Under the pieces are notes generated by a model that ran no database searches, was not told where the DNA came from, and was given only the letters and a program-made list of their open reading frames with translations. Shown here one piece after another: positions 640-34,928 of a DNA stretch of 34,928 nt (position 1 is its first letter; each line of letters opens with the position of its first letter). The position numbers and the translations under genes were made by a program. Origin of the DNA: Magnetococcales bacterium HA3dbin3. GTDB taxonomy: Bacteria; Pseudomonadota; Magnetococcia; Magnetococcales; DC0425bin3. Location: positions 1 to 34,928 of the forward strand of contig PEAJ01000008.1 of NCBI GenBank assembly GCA_002753495.1. The letters are read 5' to 3'.

Positions 640-764
640 TTCCAATTCCATATCAAGACGGCAACTTCGTTGGCTGCCTTGCTCGCTCCTCGCCGTACCA
701 AACACGTACTGCCTCGTCGCTCGCGCGTTGTAAGCCTCGTTGCCGTCTTGATCTGAAATTGGAA
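640..764 (+). repeat. Dispersed inverted-repeat element, copy A
   Basis: This 125-bp element begins with TTCCAATTCC immediately after the ychF stop codon and ends with AAATTGGAA. The outer 26 bases at each end (640-665 and 739-764) are inverted repeats matching at about 24 of 26 positions. An RNA copy would fold into a long hairpin with a roughly 70-nt top. Copy E at 26700 is about 95 percent identical (six differences by eye). Copies at 8733, 13738, 22741 and 32051 are more diverged. No transposase is near, so a MITE-like non-autonomous element or a large REP-type palindrome fits best. The remaining bases to the next gene (765-842) show nothing clear. Confidence 0.9.
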
Positions 765-842
765 CAACGCGCACCAGCGCGCGGCTTTGGTGACGGCGAA
801 GACAGGGAGACGGCAAGGCGCGCCGCGCAATCGGCTCTCTTT

Positions 843-8732: not shown

Positions 8733-8856
8733 TTCCGATTCCGGATCGAGATGGCGACGAGGCTTGCAACGCGTGAGCGACGAGACGAATACGTTTTGGT
8801 GCGGCGGGGAGCGGACAGGGCGACCAACGAAGTTGCCGTTTGGTATGGAATTGGAA
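8733..8856 (-). repeat. Dispersed inverted-repeat element, copy B (reverse orientation)
   Basis: About 124 bp, opposite in orientation to copies A and E. The left end (TTCCGATTCCGGATCGAGAT) matches the right end of copy A, and the right end (GTATGGAATTGGAA) matches its left end. The interior segment CCAACGAAGTTGCCGT is identical to copy A read in reverse. It lies 76 bases upstream of the first hybrid kinase and seems to contribute the -35 of that gene's promoter candidate. Confidence 0.85.
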
Positions 8857-16098: not shown

Positions 16099-17331
16099 AT
16101 GAACGACAAAGTATCCACATTCCGGGCACGGGACATGCGGGAGGCCTTGCAACAGGTCAAGGACGCCCTGGGGGCTGATGCCGTTATCCTCTCCACGCGC
16201 AGTCTCCGGGAAAAGGGGGGCGCCTTCATCGAGGTGACCGCCTGCCCGAATCCCAATGCTGGTGGTCCGGTACCGCCCCCCGCGGACACCCCGCCGCCAC
16301 GGAGTCGTTTTTCAGCCGTCGCCGATACGGATACCCCGCCGCCACGGAGTCGTTTTTCAGCCGTGGCCGACGATGCCCCGCCCTCCCTGGCTGGTCGGAG
16401 CGCGGTTGATCGCTATCGGCGGCAGCGTGGCCAGGGGCAAACGGCCTCCGCGCCGGCGCCGGGGTCGGGATTGGCGGCTGATCTTTCCACCATTCGCAAC
16501 TCGTTGGCGGAGCTGGAGGCTAAGGTCAACACCCAGGCAGCCCTCGAACCGGACATGGCCAATCTGGACATGGAGGGGAAGAAACGCTACAGCTACCTGC
16601 TCATGCATGGGGTCGAGGAACCGATCGCGCGCAAGTTGGCGGTGGTTGACAAGGGGGAGAAGGAACGGGGTCTGGAGGGGGCCCTGAAACGGTTTCTCAA
16701 GTTTCGCGATCCGATGGAGTCACAATCCCGGGTGATTGCCCTGGTCGGCCCGACCGGCGTCGGTAAGACCACCACCCTGGCCAAGATCGCCGCCGAGCTG
16801 CTGCTCAATCGTCGTCGAACCGTGGGCATGATCACCCTCGATACCTTTCGTGTTGGCGCCGTGGCCCAGCTTGAAACCTACGCCAAGCTGTTGCAGGTGC
16901 GCCTGATGGTGGCGCGTACCCTGTCGGAGGTGAAGGCGGGGCTGCACTCCTTGAGCAATTGCGATTTCATCCTGGTGGATACCGTGGGATCAAGTCCTTA
17001 TAATCGGCGCCAGGTCAATTCGACCGGGAGTTTGCTGCCGGTGATGGGTGAGGATCGCGAGGTTTTGCTCTGCATGGCCGGAAACGTTCGTGAAACCGAG
17101 CAACAGGCCATTTTCCGGCGTTTCTCCGCCCTGTCGCCGACTGGTTTGATCTTTACCAAGCTGGATGAGACGGTAACCTATGGCGGCATCCTCAACGTGG
17201 CGTTGCGCGCCCGGCTTCCTCTGACCCTGTATACGGACGGTCAGCGTGTGCCGGAAAATCTGGGTTGGTTGTCGGCGCAGACCATGGCCGGATGGTTTGA
17301 TCAGCCCAAGGTTCCGGAGATGGATGCTTGA
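16099..17331 (+). CDS. flhF: Flagellar biosynthesis SRP-type GTPase FlhF
   Basis: FlhF is an SRP-family GTPase that places polar flagella, working against FlhG. In 410 residues: an N-terminal B region (KVSTFRARDMREALQQVK), a Pro-rich linker, an N domain and a G domain. G1 is GPTGVGKTT (217-225), the LDTFRVGAVAQLETYA segment is at 247-262, G4 is TKLD (353-356) and the closing motif is GQRVPENL (381-388). G3 reads DTVGSSPYN (294-302) instead of the usual DTAGR, an unusual change in a catalytic loop. The linker holds an exact 15-residue duplication (see the repeat at 16286). It overlaps or closely precedes flhG. Confidence 0.96.
   Translation: MNDKVSTFRARDMREALQQVKDALGADAVILSTRSLREKGGAFIEVTACPNPNAGGPVPPPADTPPPRSRFSAVADTDTPPPRSRFSAVADDAPPSLAGRSAVDRYRRQRGQGQTASAPAPGSGLAADLSTIRNSLAELEAKVNTQAALEPDMANLDMEGKKRYSYLLMHGVEEPIARKLAVVDKGEKERGLEGALKRFLKFRDPMESQSRVIALVGPTGVGKTTTLAKIAAELLLNRRRTVGMITLDTFRVGAVAQLETYAKLLQVRLMVARTLSEVKAGLHSLSNCDFILVDTVGSSPYNRRQVNSTGSLLPVMGEDREVLLCMAGNVRETEQQAIFRRFSALSPTGLIFTKLDETVTYGGILNVALRARLPLTLYTDGQRVPENLGWLSAQTMAGWFDQPKVPEMDA
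16286..16375 (+). repeat. 45-bp tandem duplication inside the flhF linker
   Basis: Two in-frame copies of 45 bp (16286-16330 and 16331-16375) encode the shared core TPPPRSRFSAVAD. They are nearly identical at the DNA level, which points to a recent duplication. It lies in the disordered linker between the FlhF B and NG domains. Confidence 0.85.
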
Positions 17332-25227: not shown

Positions 25228-25323
25228 AGGGTTATGCATCGGCTCGCGTCAGTCTTGAATCAGAACGGAACGAAAAGGGTTATGCATCGGCCCGCGTCAG
25301 TCTTGAATCAGAACGGAACAAAA
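25228..25323 (+). repeat. 48-bp tandem duplication just before the glycosyltransferase start
   Basis: Two copies of 48 bp (25228-25275, 25276-25323) differ at only one or two bases. Each contains GGTTATGCAT, giving an in-frame ATG, so the glycosyltransferase frame is open through both. The part CTTGAATCAGAACGGAAC resembles the right end of the dispersed repeat (copy D). The duplication ends seven bases before the chosen ATG. Confidence 0.9.
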
Positions 25324-26699: not shown

Positions 26700-26824
26700 C
26701 GCCAATTCCATATCAAAACGGCAACTTCGTTGGCTGCCTTGCGCGCTCCTCGCCGTACCAAACACGTACTGCCTCGCCGCTCGCGCGTTGTAAGCTTCGT
26801 TGCTGTCTTGATCTGGAATTGGAA
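26700..26824 (+). repeat. Dispersed inverted-repeat element, copy E
   Basis: 125 bp, about 95 percent identical to copy A by eye (six differences), in the same orientation. The ends CCAATTCCATATCAAAACGG and CTGTCTTGATCTGGAATTGG are inverted relative to each other. The differences from copy A inside the terminal repeats are not compensatory, so the two arms are not being kept perfectly paired. Confidence 0.92.
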
Positions 26825-26848
26825 CCAGAAGAGTCCTGGGCGAGATTG

Positions 26849-30612: not shown

Positions 30613-31869
30613 TCACCCGGTATCCTCGTAGACGATTTTCCACAGGTCGTTCTCCAACCACCAGTATTGCCGGCGCAAGGGCTGTCTGGAAAGCTCTTTG
30701 CCGCGCATCTCCTGGGTGAAGGTGACAACGATCATACGCCGGTCGGTGGGATAACCCAGGATACTCATGTCGGAGAAGCTGGTCTCCCCCGCGCCCTTCT
30801 CCTGGAAGAACCGGTGCAAGGCCCTGGACCAACTGGCATAATCATAGCGATTATTCTGGAACCCGCTCGAATAGTGGCGCAAAACACGATCGGCACGGCC
30901 ACTCACCCAATCCTGGTGCCACTCCTGCACCCGGGCGAGAAACCAATCGAGCTGGCCACGCCACTCGACCGGATCCAACCACTCGACGGCGTTGCTGATG
31001 ATGACCGGCGTGCCGATGCCGACCACCTCGCCAATGGTCTGAAAATCAATGTTGGTCAGGGCGACGCAGCCATCGCTCGTTGTCGGTGGGCGGCTGTAGG
31101 TGGTGAAGGGGGTGCCGTGCAGCCAGATGCCATCCCCGGTCTTTCTGTGCAGCCGATCCCACTCGTTGGGGTAGTTGATCGGCATTGCCCCGACTCCGTA
31201 CAGCGGCGGGAGTTTGTAGCCGGGAAGGTAGTCGGTAATGAAGTAGAGCCCGATCGGGGTCCTCTTGTCCCCCTTCAGGAACTTGCCGGCGCCGTTCTTG
31301 CCACTGGAGATGTAGTAATTGGCGATCAACTCTGGCCGCCCGTTGATGCGACGGAACAGGAAGAGACGGGATTTGGTCAAGTCGACGACGGCGGCGTGCC
31401 CCTGGGCGCGGGAGAGGTAAATCAGGTCCTGTGGGATGGCGTCCTTGGGCGGAGGATCGAGCAGGTTGCGCAGTCGCGCCCGGGCCTCCTCCTGAAGATG
31501 CTGCACCTCGGGGTCGTTCCCCTGACCATTACCAAAACCGTGCAGACCGCCGGCCATGGCCATATAGACGTCGCCCTGAACCAGCTGGGCCAGACGGAAA
31601 TCGGGTCTCTGCCTGGTGAGGACGGTCAACTCGCGCAAGGCTCCGGTCAGGTCGCCGTGCAGAACGGCGTCAAGCCCCTTCATCAGGGATCGCTCGGTGT
31701 TGGAGAGATAATCGAGTGAGGAGAAGGTGGTGTCGGTGGTTTCGCTCCACGCCGGGTTCCACGCGGAGTCGACGAGCCAAAGCCCGTAGATCACCAGCAA
31801 GCCGGATAGGAAACGGGACCAGTTTTTGGGGGGCACGGAGGCTTCGAGAGTATCGCTCCGCGACCACAT
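30613..31869 (-). CDS. L,D-transpeptidase (YkuD) with C-terminal NTF2-like domain
   Basis: This enzyme cross-links peptidoglycan stem peptides or attaches proteins to them. The 418-residue protein has a membrane anchor (about 19-35), a helical TPR-like segment (55-105: MKGLDAVLHGDLTGALREL), the YkuD catalytic domain (about 155-295) and a C-terminal NTF2-like domain as in Cds6-family transpeptidases. Catalytic residues are His251 in IWLHGTPF and Cys268 in TSDGCVALTN. A start at 31989 is also open and would add 40 residues of uncharacteristic sequence. I chose 31869 because it puts the anchor at a usual distance, but neither has a good ribosome-binding site. Repeat copy F lies between it and the upstream TPR gene. 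Confidence 0.88.
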   Translation of the reverse strand: MWSRSDTLEASVPPKNWSRFLSGLLVIYGLWLVDSAWNPAWSETTDTTFSSLDYLSNTERSLMKGLDAVLHGDLTGALRELTVLTRQRPDFRLAQLVQGDVYMAMAGGLHGFGNGQGNDPEVQHLQEEARARLRNLLDPPPKDAIPQDLIYLSRAQGHAAVVDLTKSRLFLFRRINGRPELIANYYISSGKNGAGKFLKGDKRTPIGLYFITDYLPGYKLPPLYGVGAMPINYPNEWDRLHRKTGDGIWLHGTPFTTYSRPPTTSDGCVALTNIDFQTIGEVVGIGTPVIISNAVEWLDPVEWRGQLDWFLARVQEWHQDWVSGRADRVLRHYSSGFQNNRYDYASWSRALHRFFQEKGAGETSFSDMSILGYPTDRRMIVVTFTQEMRGKELSRQPLRRQYWWLENDLWKIVYEDTG

Positions 31870-32050
31870 CCGAACGGAATCTTTTCCTTTCCGTTGCCAC
31901 GTACCCACGGACGCGCACACCGCCCGCGCCGGTTGTGACCATCGGGAGGAGAGATCCGAACCATCGTGCATGATTCGACCGCGTCCCATGCCGGTATCCC
32001 GTCAACCCTCAGCGCACCGACACGGCATGTCGGTTCCGGAGGGCTCCTTG

Positions 32051-32173: not shown

Positions 32174-33742
32174 TTAGTCATCCACCCCTTCCTGAAGAAT
32201 CTTCCACGTCTCCCCCTCCTTTTTCATCAGGATGGTTTTGTGGGTCACGTCGTGGAACTTGTCGGAATGGTAACTTTGGGTGAAGGTCACCCGGGCCGTG
32301 TTCGGGCTTTCCAGACGGACGTGCATATCCTCCAGGCCGACCTGAATCGATTTTGCCCTTCCAATGAGGTATTTGCGTTTCCTTGACCACTCATCCCGAT
32401 GTGAGAACCCCTCCGGCAGCTGAAAATCCCGAGCGTAGGCGGCCAGATACCGGGGGACAGCCCGTTCCGACCACGCCTCTGCCCAACCTCGAACCGCCTT
32501 TTCCACGGCCTGCGTCTCCTGAGCGGCGTTTTCCGGTGATTGCGGACGTTTGGGAGCGACTCGGGCCGATGCGGCATCGGCGCCGGACCCGGCGGCGGCC
32601 CTCTCCACTGCCTCGAAGACCTGATCCAATTGGGTCAGGTGCGCCGCGCGGACGGCCTGGTCCGCCGTCTTGACCTGCCCCTTGGCCAATTGCTTCATGG
32701 CCGCCGGGGCTTCATCCTTGATGTCTTTTTCCTTCCCTTCGTCCTTGACATCCTTCTTTGCGTCGCCCTTTTTCTGCGGGGCAGGTGGGGGCGGCGCGGC
32801 CTTGGTCTCGCGCGGGGGTTGTTGTTTCTCTTTCGCTTGTTGTTCCAGTGCGAGGGCACGCTCCTTTTCCGCGCGCACCTTGGCCTCGATATCGGCACGC
32901 GAGCGTTCGAGGGCCTCGGCGTCAGCGCGCTCGCGCTCCTCGCTCTTGACCTGAGCCATCGCCTCCGAGCGAAGCTTCTCCATCTCGGTCGCCTGGACGT
33001 GGGCCAAAATTTCGGCGTGCAATTTTTGCCGCACCTCAGCCCGAACCTGGTCCAGGACCTCGGTCCGAACCTGGTTCATGGCTTCGGCGCGGAGTTTATC
33101 CATCGCCTCGGCACGCACCTTGTCCACGGCCTCGGTGCGCGCCTTGCGCAAAAACTCCTCGGGCAGACGTGGTGGCGCGGCGGTCGCGGTCGTGCCGCCG
33201 CTCCCGGTTGGTGCGACAAAGAGATTGCGAACCAGGGCAAGCTTGGCTTCGGTCACCGAGTTGTCCCGATTGACCTGCAAGGCCTTGCGATAGGATTGCG
33301 CGGCCAGCTTGGCGTAAATGTCGCCCAGGTTTTCGCGCGCCGTGGCGTAGCCCGGTCTGGAGTTGATCGCCCGAATCAGGACATCGCGCGCCTTTTCCAG
33401 TTGCCCCTGTTCGGCATAGAGCACGGCCAGGTTGTTGAAGGGCTCGGGACGATCTGGAAACTCCTCGGTCAACTCCTGAAACACCTGGATGGCCTCGGTT
33501 TGTTTCTGCTCCTCGATCAGGAGCAGACCCCTAAGAAACCGGCCCTGGATGTCCTTGGGATTGGCCTTCAGGAACTCTGTCAGGCGGGTGGATGCCGCCG
33601 CCAGTTGCTTTTTTTCCACGAGGGCCTGGATATCCTCGATCTCCCCGGCCGTGACCGGCACGGCCACCAGCGCCCAGAGCGACAAGGCACAAGCAAGCAG
33701 GGACGGGAAAGATAAGACGCGCCTCACCGCACGAACCTCCAT
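32174..33742 (-). CDS. Secreted TPR protein with octad-repeat helix and C-terminal NTF2-like domain
   Basis: The protein has 522 residues. A signal peptide (about 1-31, ending VTAG) is followed by TPR repeats (about 32-165: AIQVFQELTEEFPDRPEPFN, EKARDVLIRAINSRPGYATA). Next come a linker, twelve 8-residue repeats (202-297), a Pro/Lys-rich linker, and a C-terminal NTF2-like domain (about 410-522) like that at the end of the neighbouring L,D-transpeptidase (both close with a W-KI-E pattern). The domain order suggests a periplasmic scaffold. The ATG at 33742 is preferred to a TTG at 33769 because it follows AAGG and starts the signal peptide properly. It has a good promoter candidate of its own. 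Confidence 0.82.
   Translation of the reverse strand: MEVRAVRRVLSFPSLLACALSLWALVAVPVTAGEIEDIQALVEKKQLAAASTRLTEFLKANPKDIQGRFLRGLLLIEEQKQTEAIQVFQELTEEFPDRPEPFNNLAVLYAEQGQLEKARDVLIRAINSRPGYATARENLGDIYAKLAAQSYRKALQVNRDNSVTEAKLALVRNLFVAPTGSGGTTATAAPPRLPEEFLRKARTEAVDKVRAEAMDKLRAEAMNQVRTEVLDQVRAEVRQKLHAEILAHVQATEMEKLRSEAMAQVKSEERERADAEALERSRADIEAKVRAEKERALALEQQAKEKQQPPRETKAAPPPPAPQKKGDAKKDVKDEGKEKDIKDEAPAAMKQLAKGQVKTADQAVRAAHLTQLDQVFEAVERAAAGSGADAASARVAPKRPQSPENAAQETQAVEKAVRGWAEAWSERAVPRYLAAYARDFQLPEGFSHRDEWSRKRKYLIGRAKSIQVGLEDMHVRLESPNTARVTFTQSYHSDKFHDVTHKTILMKKEGETWKILQEGVDD
32852..33139 (-). repeat. Twelve 24-bp (8-residue) tandem repeats in the TPR protein gene
   Basis: 288 bases encode twelve unbroken 8-residue units of the type RAEAMDKL, RAEAMNQV, RTEVLDQV, HAEILAHV. 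Units 1-8 are the most regular; units 9-12 (KSEERERA, DAEALERS, RADIEAKV, RAEKERAL) are degenerate. The DNA copies differ at many third positions, so the array is old and kept by selection on the protein. Confidence 0.85.
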
Positions 33743-33789
33743 GACCTTGTATCCCCAAGGGACAGGCAAAGGAAACGAACAGCGCCGCC

Positions 33790-33834: not shown

Positions 33835-34557
33835 TCAAATGGGCAGAAAGATCAGAAACTGCAAGGCCTGCTTGATGAAGCGCTTGGTCTTTTGCGCCAC
33901 CACCTGCGACATGGCGTCCTGGAGGGCGATCATCTTCCCGAAAAGACGTTCATAGCTAAGGTTGTGTACACTCCCCTCGCTTTCGTTGCTGAGCAGATAG
34001 AGCGTGCCCTGTGCGTCCCGCTCGTGGCCGAGGAGCCACAAGGCCAGCTCCAGATTGCGGGCGCTGTTGTAGAGCTTTTGCGGATCAAGCGAGTCGAGGA
34101 CGAAAAACTCCCTCTTGCTGTTGTAAGAGGCCATGACCATCGACCCAAGGCCTACGGTGTAGGCAAGGACGCGATCACCGGTGAAGGAGTCCTGGAAGGC
34201 AAGCCGGATGCAGTCGACCCCCTTCTGGCGGTTCAGTTCCTGAAACTCCCAATTGTGAAAAGAGCCGAACACCCGCGCAACGTTGCCATCGATCTGGTGT
34301 ACGGTGCCGCGATGCAGCTGGCTGGGATTGCGCCGGTAAAGCTTGATCATCAGCTGCTTGATGTATCCCATCATGTCGCGCTGGATGGTTTCGACGAACA
34401 GGTTGACATCGGTCTTGGCCAGATCCTGCCAGGAGAAGCTTGGATCATCCTGATCGATCGGGGTTTTTTCCGGCGCGGAGCCGGCACACCCCGCGAGTCC
34501 CGACAGCAGGGGCAGGGCAGCCAGCAGCACCCGAAAGGGCCTCAAGCGCACATGCAT
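33835..34557 (-). CDS. Lipoprotein of unknown function next to mlaA
   Basis: This 240-residue protein is a lipoprotein: basic N-terminus, hydrophobic run and lipobox LSGLAGC with Cys24. The mature part is mixed alpha/beta (LFVETIQRDMMGYIKQLMIK, VLAYTVGLGSMVMASYNSKR, LYNSARNLELALWLLGHERD) and ends with a hydrophobic helix (QALQFLIFLP). I do not recognise the family. It starts 35 bases after the mlaA stop and is probably co-transcribed with it, which suggests an outer-membrane or lipid-transport setting; that is inference only. Confidence 0.75.
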   Translation of the reverse strand: MHVRLRPFRVLLAALPLLSGLAGCAGSAPEKTPIDQDDPSFSWQDLAKTDVNLFVETIQRDMMGYIKQLMIKLYRRNPSQLHRGTVHQIDGNVARVFGSFHNWEFQELNRQKGVDCIRLAFQDSFTGDRVLAYTVGLGSMVMASYNSKREFFVLDSLDPQKLYNSARNLELALWLLGHERDAQGTLYLLSNESEGSVHNLSYERLFGKMIALQDAMSQVVAQKTKRFIKQALQFLIFLPI

Positions 34558-34592: not shown

Positions 34593-34928
34593 TCAGCGCG
34601 CCACCTTCTCCTGACGCCTCTGGACGTAGCCGCTGCGCACCGCGATGTAGGGATCGAGAGTCGCCGTGCGCAGGGTTTGAAACTCCTCAAGCCGGAGCGA
34701 AATCTCATTGACCTTGGCAAAGGTGCGAATGGCCAGCCGGTCCCAAAAGTCGTCGGGCTTGTAGTTCAGGGGATCGAGGAAGGCGTCGCCAATTTCGCCG
34801 ACACTGTCGCGCGCATTGGAGGGACCAAAAACGGGCCAGACGACGTAAGGTCCGTTACCGATACCGTAACGACCAAGCGTCTGGCCGAGATCGGACTCGC
34901 TGCTGTGCAGGTTGAAATGCAGGGAAGC
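34593..34928 (-). CDS. mlaA: Outer-membrane lipid asymmetry lipoprotein MlaA (VacJ), C-terminal part
   Basis: The frame is open to the window edge, so only the last 111 residues are present. SDLGQTLGRYGIGNGPYVVW, VFGPSNARDSVGEIGDAFLD and DPLNYKPDDFW are the conserved MlaA core; the tail ends EKVAR. MlaA sits in the outer membrane with porins and removes misplaced phospholipids from the outer leaflet, passing them to MlaC. The start and lipobox lie outside the window, as would any mlaC or mlaBDEF genes. Confidence 0.93.
   Translation of the reverse strand, partial: ASLHFNLHSSESDLGQTLGRYGIGNGPYVVWPVFGPSNARDSVGEIGDAFLDPLNYKPDDFWDRLAIRTFAKVNEISLRLEEFQTLRTATLDPYIAVRSGYVQRRQEKVAR

What the first reader, a model, noticed from the sequence alone, without database searches (positions are those of the whole stretch)
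32852..33139. Strict 8-residue periodicity, twelve units without a break
Units of the RAEAMDKL type repeat every eight residues for 96 residues. Ordinary coiled coils use 7 or 11. An exact octad gives a 4.0 hydrophobic spacing, which is unusual and would force either strong supercoiling or a charged single helix about 14 nm long. It may be a rigid periplasmic spacer.
Basis: seen in the sequence. Interest (0 to 1): 0.55.

Follow-up and report, generated by a model that had tools for sequence, protein, structure and literature searches.

The report
Eight-residue helical rod joining two domains
A predicted cell-envelope protein from a Magnetococcales bacterium joins a protein-binding domain to a probable cell-wall-binding domain through a long helix built of eight-residue repeats, a rhythm that ordinary coiled coils cannot adopt and that related species replace with quite different linkers.

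Summary
The octad is real: residues 202-297 of a 522-aa protein (window 32852-33139, minus strand) repeat at lags 8, 16 and 24 (0 of 5000 shuffles reach any of them) with no indel. Units 1-8 are clean, 9-12 degenerate. Units are only about 32% identical to each other, but each is conserved as itself in relatives: an old, selected array. AlphaFold2 predicts one unbroken helix, residues 195-306 (about 17 nm). Its 4.0-residue hydrophobic spacing lies outside the published coiled-coil range. It has an i,i+4 salt-bridge ladder but too few charges for a canonical single alpha-helix. The protein is signal peptide - TPR - octad helix - disordered - Csd6/Pgp2-type NTF2 domain, next to a Csd6/Pgp2/Bd1075-like YkuD gene. 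Across Magnetococcales the end domains are conserved, the linker is not: octad in 6 of 22 orthologues, otherwise heptad, 12-mer, pentad or mostly Pro/Ala-rich. Pgp2's peptidoglycan-pocket residues are kept in the 22 TPR proteins (F242 in 20; K257 as R), while the neighbouring enzyme's own NTF2 domain has lost several. Best reading: a stiff periplasmic spacer in a peptidoglycan-binding partner of the enzyme. Peptidoglycan binding, partner and monomeric state are inferred, not shown.

The parts
32174..33742 (-). 522-aa gene: signal-like N-terminus, TPR, octad helix, disordered stretch, Cds6_C NTF2-like domain (an upstream in-frame TTG at 33769 is also possible)
   Evidence: ORF; Pfam TPR and Cds6_C; AlphaFold2 model
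33647..33742 (-). signal-like N-terminus, residues 1-32 (basic n-region, hydrophobic core, V-T-A before G-E)
   Evidence: read from sequence; no signal-peptide predictor was available; relatives share the layout
33215..33649 (-). TPR domain, residues 32-176
   Evidence: Pfam TPR_11 1.8e-13 and others; helices in model; Foldseek TPR hits
32825..33160 (-). single unbroken predicted helix, residues 195-306, about 16.8 nm at 0.15 nm per residue
   Evidence: AlphaFold2, pLDDT block means 81-96 over 201-300
32852..33139 (-). twelve in-frame octads, residues 202-297; consensus R-A-E-A-(M/L)-(D/E/A)-(K/Q)-(V/L)
   Evidence: autocorrelation, spectra and composition, unit-by-unit conservation
32537..32812 (-). 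Pro/Lys-rich stretch of mostly low confidence, probably largely disordered, with two weakly predicted helices (345-353, 360-384); residues 311-402
   Evidence: pLDDT below 50 over 311-358 and 385-399; fastest-changing part of the protein
32177..32509 (-). Cds6_C NTF2-like domain, residues 412-522, with the Pgp2 peptidoglycan-pocket residues kept
   Evidence: Pfam 4e-15; PDB profile hits Bd1075 1.7e-14, Pgp2, Csd6; Foldseek rank 1 Bd1075; pocket counts
30613..31989 (-). neighbour: YkuD domain + Cds6_C NTF2-like domain, Csd6/Pgp2/Bd1075-like LD-carboxypeptidase or LD-transpeptidase
   Evidence: Pfam YkuD 6.6e-16 and Cds6_C 1.8e-18; PDB hits 7o21, 4xzz, 6xj6
33835..34557 (-). conserved neighbour, putative 240-aa lipoprotein (by eye) of unknown family
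   Evidence: found in 10 of 21 fetched loci; no Pfam or NCBIfam match
34593..34928 (-). MlaA lipoprotein (cut by the window end)
   Evidence: Pfam MlaA 6.6e-29; within 17 of 21 fetched loci

Best explanation
The octads form one long, essentially straight alpha-helix that works as a stiff periplasmic spacer. It holds an N-terminal TPR domain (partner binding) about 15-17 nm from a C-terminal part that ends in an NTF2-like domain gripping peptidoglycan. Shown by computation: the octad, its conservation, the predicted single helix, the two end domains, the retained pocket residues and the conserved neighbourhood. Inferred: periplasmic location, peptidoglycan binding by this protein, the monomeric rod state, and that the TPR end serves the adjacent Csd6/Pgp2-like enzyme, whose own NTF2 pocket is degraded in this order. 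The 4.0-residue rhythm is tolerated because E3, K/Q/R7 and the next E3 face each other at i,i+4 along the helix, while the hydrophobic residues at positions 5 and 8 spiral round it (80 degrees per unit) instead of making a coiled-coil seam.
For: Octad statistics. i,i+4 opposite-charge pairs 17 against 8.9 expected (7 of 5000 shuffles as high) and i,i+4 like-charge pairs 2 against 8.5 (11 of 5000 as low). AlphaFold2 helix 195-306, and 201-287 in the family-f4 octad orthologue L040. 4.0 excluded for coiled coils (PMC4786415, passages). Same ends, different linkers in orthologues. Array nonsynonymous change (pN 0.18 at pS 0.65) close to the NTF2 domain (0.16 at 0.62) and about half the rest of the linker (0.33) for window against L036. 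Pocket residues Y233, K307, E324 identical in 22 of 22, K257 as R in 22 of 22, F242 in 20 of 22; in Pgp2 these bind peptidoglycan (PMC8038945, passages). YkuD gene adjacent in 15 of 21 loci.
Against: Only 44% of residues are charged and 22% are LIVM, less polar than typical single alpha-helices; Ala-rich designed repeats aggregated (reported in PMC5812594 section 7), so self-association is possible. Alternating-charge networks are only modestly enriched in the whole array (58 of 2000 shuffles as high) and not in units 1-8 (305 of 2000) or in the f4 array (741 of 2000). i,i+3 salt bridges are not enriched (9 against 9.0). Only a single chain could be modelled. The gene persists without an adjacent YkuD gene in 6 of 21 loci. 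There are no localisation or binding data. A probably disordered stretch separates helix and NTF2 domain, so the rod does not fix the distance rigidly.
Confidence: 0.55

Rival explanations
1. The octad helix self-associates: the 4-residue-spaced A4/V8 positions pack against another helix, as a tightly wound right-handed pair or an untwisted antiparallel stack, making the protein a dimer or higher oligomer.
For: Hydrophobic power at 4.0 is the strongest line (15.3); 22% LIVM and 19% Ala; PMC5812594 section 7 suggests even-numbered patterns would stack if they aggregate at all.
Against: PMC4786415 places 4.0 outside the accessible coiled-coil range, about 3.33 to 3.9; hydrophobic seam triplets are not clearly above shuffles (7 against 4.0, 319 of 2000 as high); the octads degenerate in units 9-12 without loss of predicted helix.
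Confidence: 0.25
2. The octad helix is itself a binding surface for a partner (membrane protein, glycan or the TPR groove), so the repeat is selected for side-chain presentation and not for reach.
For: Array pN is similar to that of the NTF2 domain; each unit is conserved as itself (window against genus relatives 5.3-5.6 of 8, against another genus 4.3, against about 2.5 for other units).
Against: Orthologues with the same end domains lack the octad (15 of 22), so a conserved partner on this surface is unlikely outside this lineage.
Confidence: 0.13
3. The octad is a neutral by-product of old DNA duplication with helix-compatible low-complexity composition, without a role for the period.
For: Linkers of other periods (5, 7/14, 12) exist in sister lineages.
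Against: DNA units average 49% identity while the protein phase persists; no indel breaks the phase across the 4 genus-level sequences; nonsynonymous change is well below synonymous.
Confidence: 0.07

Closest known systems
Single alpha-helix (SAH) domains (Myo10, INCENP, Drebrin; designed E4K4 octads)
   Same: Long lone helix between two domains, i,i+4 salt-bridge ladder, even-numbered repeat that gives no coiled-coil seam.
   Different: 44% charged instead of up to 80%; richer in Ala and V/L/M; a true 12-fold octad, whereas PMC5812594 (section 7) reports E4[K/R]4 octads as extremely rare in eukaryotic SAHs and not repeated. Monomeric state untested.
TolA / TonB domain II periplasmic linkers
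   Same: Homologous periplasmic proteins whose middle linker is alpha-helical in some lineages and Pro-rich in others (PMC12204202, passages).
   Different: End domains differ: no TolA/TonB match in Pfam or NCBIfam; here TPR and NTF2-like ends, with no motor partner known.
Csd6 / Pgp2 / Bd1075 LD-carboxypeptidases
   Same: C-terminal NTF2-like domain (profile E 1.7e-14 to 7o21 = Bd1075) with peptidoglycan-pocket residues; the adjacent gene is a full YkuD+NTF2 protein of this kind.
   Different: The octad protein has TPR + helix in place of the catalytic YkuD domain; the neighbour keeps the YkuD domain but has lost pocket residues.
alpha/beta coiled coils with hexads and nonads (PMC4786415)
   Same: Non-heptad, non-hendecad periodic bacterial fibres.
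   Different: Those are trimers with beta-layers from 6- or 9-residue motifs; here an 8-residue repeat modelled as one continuous helix.

Membership tests
Alpha-helical coiled coil | hydrophobic periodicity within about 3.33-3.9 residues per turn | tested here: not met
   Power peaks at 4.0 (15.3); 0.8 at 3.5, 0.0 at 3.67, 1.9 at 3.75; range from PMC4786415 passages
Alpha-helical coiled coil | two or more helices wound together | not testable with these tools
   Only single-chain prediction available
Single alpha-helix (SAH) domain | one long continuous helix | tested here: met
   AlphaFold2 helix 195-306; 201-287 in the L040 orthologue
Single alpha-helix (SAH) domain | i,i+4 salt bridges enriched | tested here: met
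   17 against 8.9 expected, 7 of 5000 shuffles as high; three-residue charge networks only 58 of 2000
Single alpha-helix (SAH) domain | composition dominated by E, K, R (up to 80%) | tested here: not met
   44% DEKR, 19% A, 22% LIVM
Single alpha-helix (SAH) domain | monomeric in solution | not testable with these tools
   needs ultracentrifugation, SEC-MALS or SAXS
Cds6_C NTF2-like domain (Pfam PF24125) | profile score above curated cut-off | tested here: met
   56.5 bits against 27; Foldseek rank 1 Bd1075
Cds6_C NTF2-like domain (Pfam PF24125) | Pgp2 peptidoglycan-pocket residues Y233, F242, K257, K307, E324 | tested here: met
   Window: Y, F, R, K, E; over 22 rows: Y 22, F 20, R 22 (conservative change), K 22, E 22; binding itself untested
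Csd6/Pgp2 LD-carboxypeptidase | YkuD catalytic domain in the same chain | tested here: not met
   The octad protein has no YkuD match; the neighbour 30613-31989 has one
TolA/TonB force transducer | TolA/TonB C-terminal domain | tested here: not met
   No such Pfam or NCBIfam match at E <= 0.01

The most novel reading that the evidence does not exclude
Natural 4.0-residue-periodic alpha-rods exist as a structural class between coiled coils and charged single helices. In Magnetococcales such a rod is the ruler of a dedicated peptidoglycan-recognition subunit: the LD-enzyme's own NTF2 pocket has decayed and its TPR-NTF2 partner supplies cell-wall recognition in trans at a set distance, with sister lineages swapping the ruler for heptad, 12-mer or Pro-rich linkers.
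Probability: 0.25. Interest if true: 0.62.

Novelty: new variant of a known kind. Interest (0 to 1): 0.42.

Why it matters
A conserved 12-fold octad is a natural test of how far helix periodicity can leave the coiled-coil range. The orthologue set (same ends, linkers of period 5, 7/14, 8, 12 or none) is a ready-made natural linker-swap series for asking whether length or stiffness matters. The split pocket pattern suggests how a cell-wall enzyme of a shape-determining family may borrow its wall-recognition domain from a partner.

Tried and rejected
Recent DNA tandem duplication: rejected (units 49% identical in DNA on average). Heptad or hendecad coiled coil: rejected from the spectrum; heptads are instead found in the f11 orthologues L044 and L046, which served as a positive control for the method. 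Octad arrays elsewhere: none at E <= 1e-4 outside this protein in 299 genomes drawn from the phylum (6 of 299 match, all in this orthologue); none elsewhere in the same genome at E <= 1 (the genome is 77% complete); none in phages; one weak partial hit in one plasmid record. PDB: only ribosomal eL29 tails at E 0.11 to 2.8, judged compositional. L043 shows lag 8 (z 4.1) but heptad-type hydrophobic power (5.1 at 3.5), so it is not counted as octad. Single origin of the octad: the tree needs 2 changes, but one clade is not rejected (p 0.267). Literature: searches (tetratricopeptide, NTF2-like, D-transpeptidase, Magnetococc; any three) returned no paper, and no paper on this protein appeared in the others' listings. 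Only open-licence papers are held there. Papers seen as passages: PMC8038945, PMC4786415, PMC5812594 (plus its section 7), PMC8938487, PMC12204202; all others only as search listings with the start of the abstract.

Rows left out: 22 orthologues were analysed in detail out of up to 48 genomes of the order (20 stretches picked to cover families and the long-linker candidates, plus the window and L034); 30 linkers were read by eye. L044, L045 and L046 were left out of A1; L054 out of A4 because its enzyme frame is cut at a contig end; L045 out of the tree. Family f5 (G007) has its frame split and was not used. L034 and L037 are near-identical, so the effective number is smaller. Synonymous change is near saturation, so pN/pS is only comparative.

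Full report
WHAT IS THERE. The finding lies in a minus-strand gene, 32174-33742 (ATG; 522 aa). Identity at lags 8, 16 and 24 is 0.341, 0.312 and 0.306 (z 7.5, 6.4, 5.6; 0 of 5000 shuffles each); no other lag up to 29 exceeds z 1.1. Position preferences in the 12 units are R (8), A (8), E (10), A (5) or V/I (4), M/L/V (8), D/E/A (9), K/Q/R (10), V/L (10). Units 9-12 are degenerate but in phase.

WHERE IT COMES FROM. The nearest named relative is a Magnetococcales metagenome bin, 61% identical over residues 9-530 (L034); the window's genome is 2.9 Mb in 316 contigs, 77% complete. Relatives carry codes, not names: f1, f2 and so on are the family codes.

IT IS OLD AND CONSTRAINED. Units of the window average 32% protein identity and 49% DNA identity to each other, yet each matches its own counterpart in relatives: window against genus relatives 5.3-5.6 of 8 and against another genus 4.3 of 8, against about 2.5 of 8 for other units. 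Nonsynonymous difference between the window and L036 is 0.18 in the array, 0.16 in NTF2, 0.11 in TPR and 0.33 in the rest of the linker, at synonymous difference 0.57-0.71 (uncorrected proportions). No indel breaks the 12 units in the 4 genus-level sequences; L038 has a 9-residue insertion in unit 11. L034 and L037 are near-identical, so these are about three independent lineages plus L038.

WHAT SHAPE. AlphaFold2 on a 19-row orthologue alignment gives helix 195-306, block pLDDT 81-96 over 201-300, then a low-confidence stretch. The orthologue L040 of another family, with its own octads, gives helix 201-287. Such models tend to favour helix for this kind of sequence, so this supports helicity, not the monomeric state. 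Hydrophobic power peaks at 4.0 (15.3) with almost none at 3.5-3.67, whereas the linkers of L044 and L046 peak at 3.5 as normal coiled coils do (9.2 and 10.2). PMC4786415 (passages) puts the lower limit of coiled-coil periodicity at 3.33, expects the upper one near 3.9, and states that 4.0 is outside the accessible range. i,i+4 opposite-charge pairs are enriched (17 against 8.9) and like-charge pairs depleted (2 against 8.5); i,i+3 pairs are not enriched. Composition (44% DEKR, 22% LIVM, 19% A) is not that of a canonical single alpha-helix; PMC5812594 section 7 gives up to 80% E/K/R, finds E4[K/R]4 octads extremely rare and unrepeated in eukaryotes, and argues that even-numbered patterns make straight helices.

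WHAT IT JOINS. N-terminal TPRs and a C-terminal Cds6_C NTF2-like domain (56.5 bits against cut-off 27). The NTF2 profile finds only Bd1075, Pgp2 and Csd6 in the PDB at E <= 0.01, and Foldseek ranks Bd1075 first. PMC8038945 (passages) shows that the Pgp2 NTF2 pocket (Y233, F242, K257, K307, E324) binds peptidoglycan and is needed for cell shape; PMC8938487 (passages) shows that this domain localises Bd1075. In 22 TPR proteins these positions are Y 22, F 20 (A 2), R 22, K 22, E 22.

NEIGHBOURS. The window order is MlaA, a 240-aa putative lipoprotein, the octad protein, YkuD+NTF2, NUDIX. In 21 fetched loci the YkuD gene is present next to the TPR gene in 15 and absent in 6 (L041, L047, L048, L050, L051, L055); MlaA is found in 17, the 240-aa protein in 10, NUDIX in 19; some misses are contig ends. 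In G003 MlaA and the 240-aa gene lie about 11 kb away. In 3 of 3 distant genomes of the phylum (family f18) that I fetched because both end domains matched, the TPR-NTF2 gene and a YkuD-NTF2 gene are also adjacent, with a short linker of mostly Pro-containing, non-repetitive sequence, so the pair is probably older than the order and the octad derived.

SPLIT POCKETS. In 15 Magnetococcales YkuD proteins the NTF2 positions equal to Y233 are V/A/I/L (15 of 15), to K257 L/I/V/M (15 of 15), to K307 R (13), H (1), M (1), while F242 (14) and E324 (14) are kept. In the 3 f18 genomes both partners keep the pocket: in the enzyme Y, F, K, K, E in 3 of 3; in the TPR protein Y (2) or F (1), Y (2) or F (1), K 3, K 3, E 3. 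This suggests, without proving, that wall recognition moved to the TPR protein in this order. It rests on an alignment of divergent domains (21% identity in the profile comparison, probability 98).

LINKER SWAPPING. Over 22 orthologues the leading linker period is 8 (with 16) in the window, L036, L037, L034, L038 and L040; 14/7 in L044 and L046; 12 in L039; 5 in L045; ambiguous in L043; and no clear helical period in the others, most of which are Pro-rich. The tree of the end domains puts the five f1-type octads together (90/94) and L040 apart, but a single octad clade is not rejected (p 0.267). TolA and TonB show a similar helix/Pro-rich alternation (PMC12204202, passages).

VERDICT. The octad is real, conserved and unusual. 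The best reading is a stiff spacer in a probable peptidoglycan-binding partner of a Csd6-like enzyme. Location, binding, partner and oligomeric state remain to be measured.

Noticed in passing
window 642-765 and 26702-26825; partial inverted copy 8795-8841: Dispersed repeat of about 124 nt, 95% identical between two copies 26 kb apart, with a third partial inverted copy (47 nt, 84-85%): looks like a small intergenic mobile or palindromic element.
   Followed up: no
window 25228-25323: 48-nt direct tandem duplication (96%) in the long open frame at the start of a glycosyltransferase-like ORF (name by eye); the true start is probably downstream.
   Followed up: no
window 16283-16370: 45-nt tandem duplication (95%) in a Pro-rich N-terminal linker of the gene I take from memory to be flhF, among flagellar genes.
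   Followed up: no
window 30613-31989 and 15 aligned Magnetococcales YkuD proteins: The enzyme's NTF2 domain has lost the Pgp2 pocket residues Y233, K257 and mostly K307, while distant relatives keep them.
   Followed up: partly
L005 / L034 (G035:C400; JADFZF010000076.1 has the same length, 11653 bases): Bin G035 is placed in family f13 but this contig carries a TPR gene nearly identical to that of G002 in the window's genus, and the bin has its own f13-type copy on C426: likely a mis-binned contig.
   Followed up: no
window 32540-33715, plus strand: A 391-aa open frame antisense to most of the gene, array included; taken as a by-product of codon composition because the minus frame shows the conservation.
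   Followed up: partly
L039 5503-7275 (G004): Orthologue with a strongly charged 12-residue-period linker (102 alternating-charge networks against 35.6 expected, 0 of 2000 shuffles as high): a better candidate for a canonical bacterial single alpha-helix than the window's octad.
   Followed up: partly
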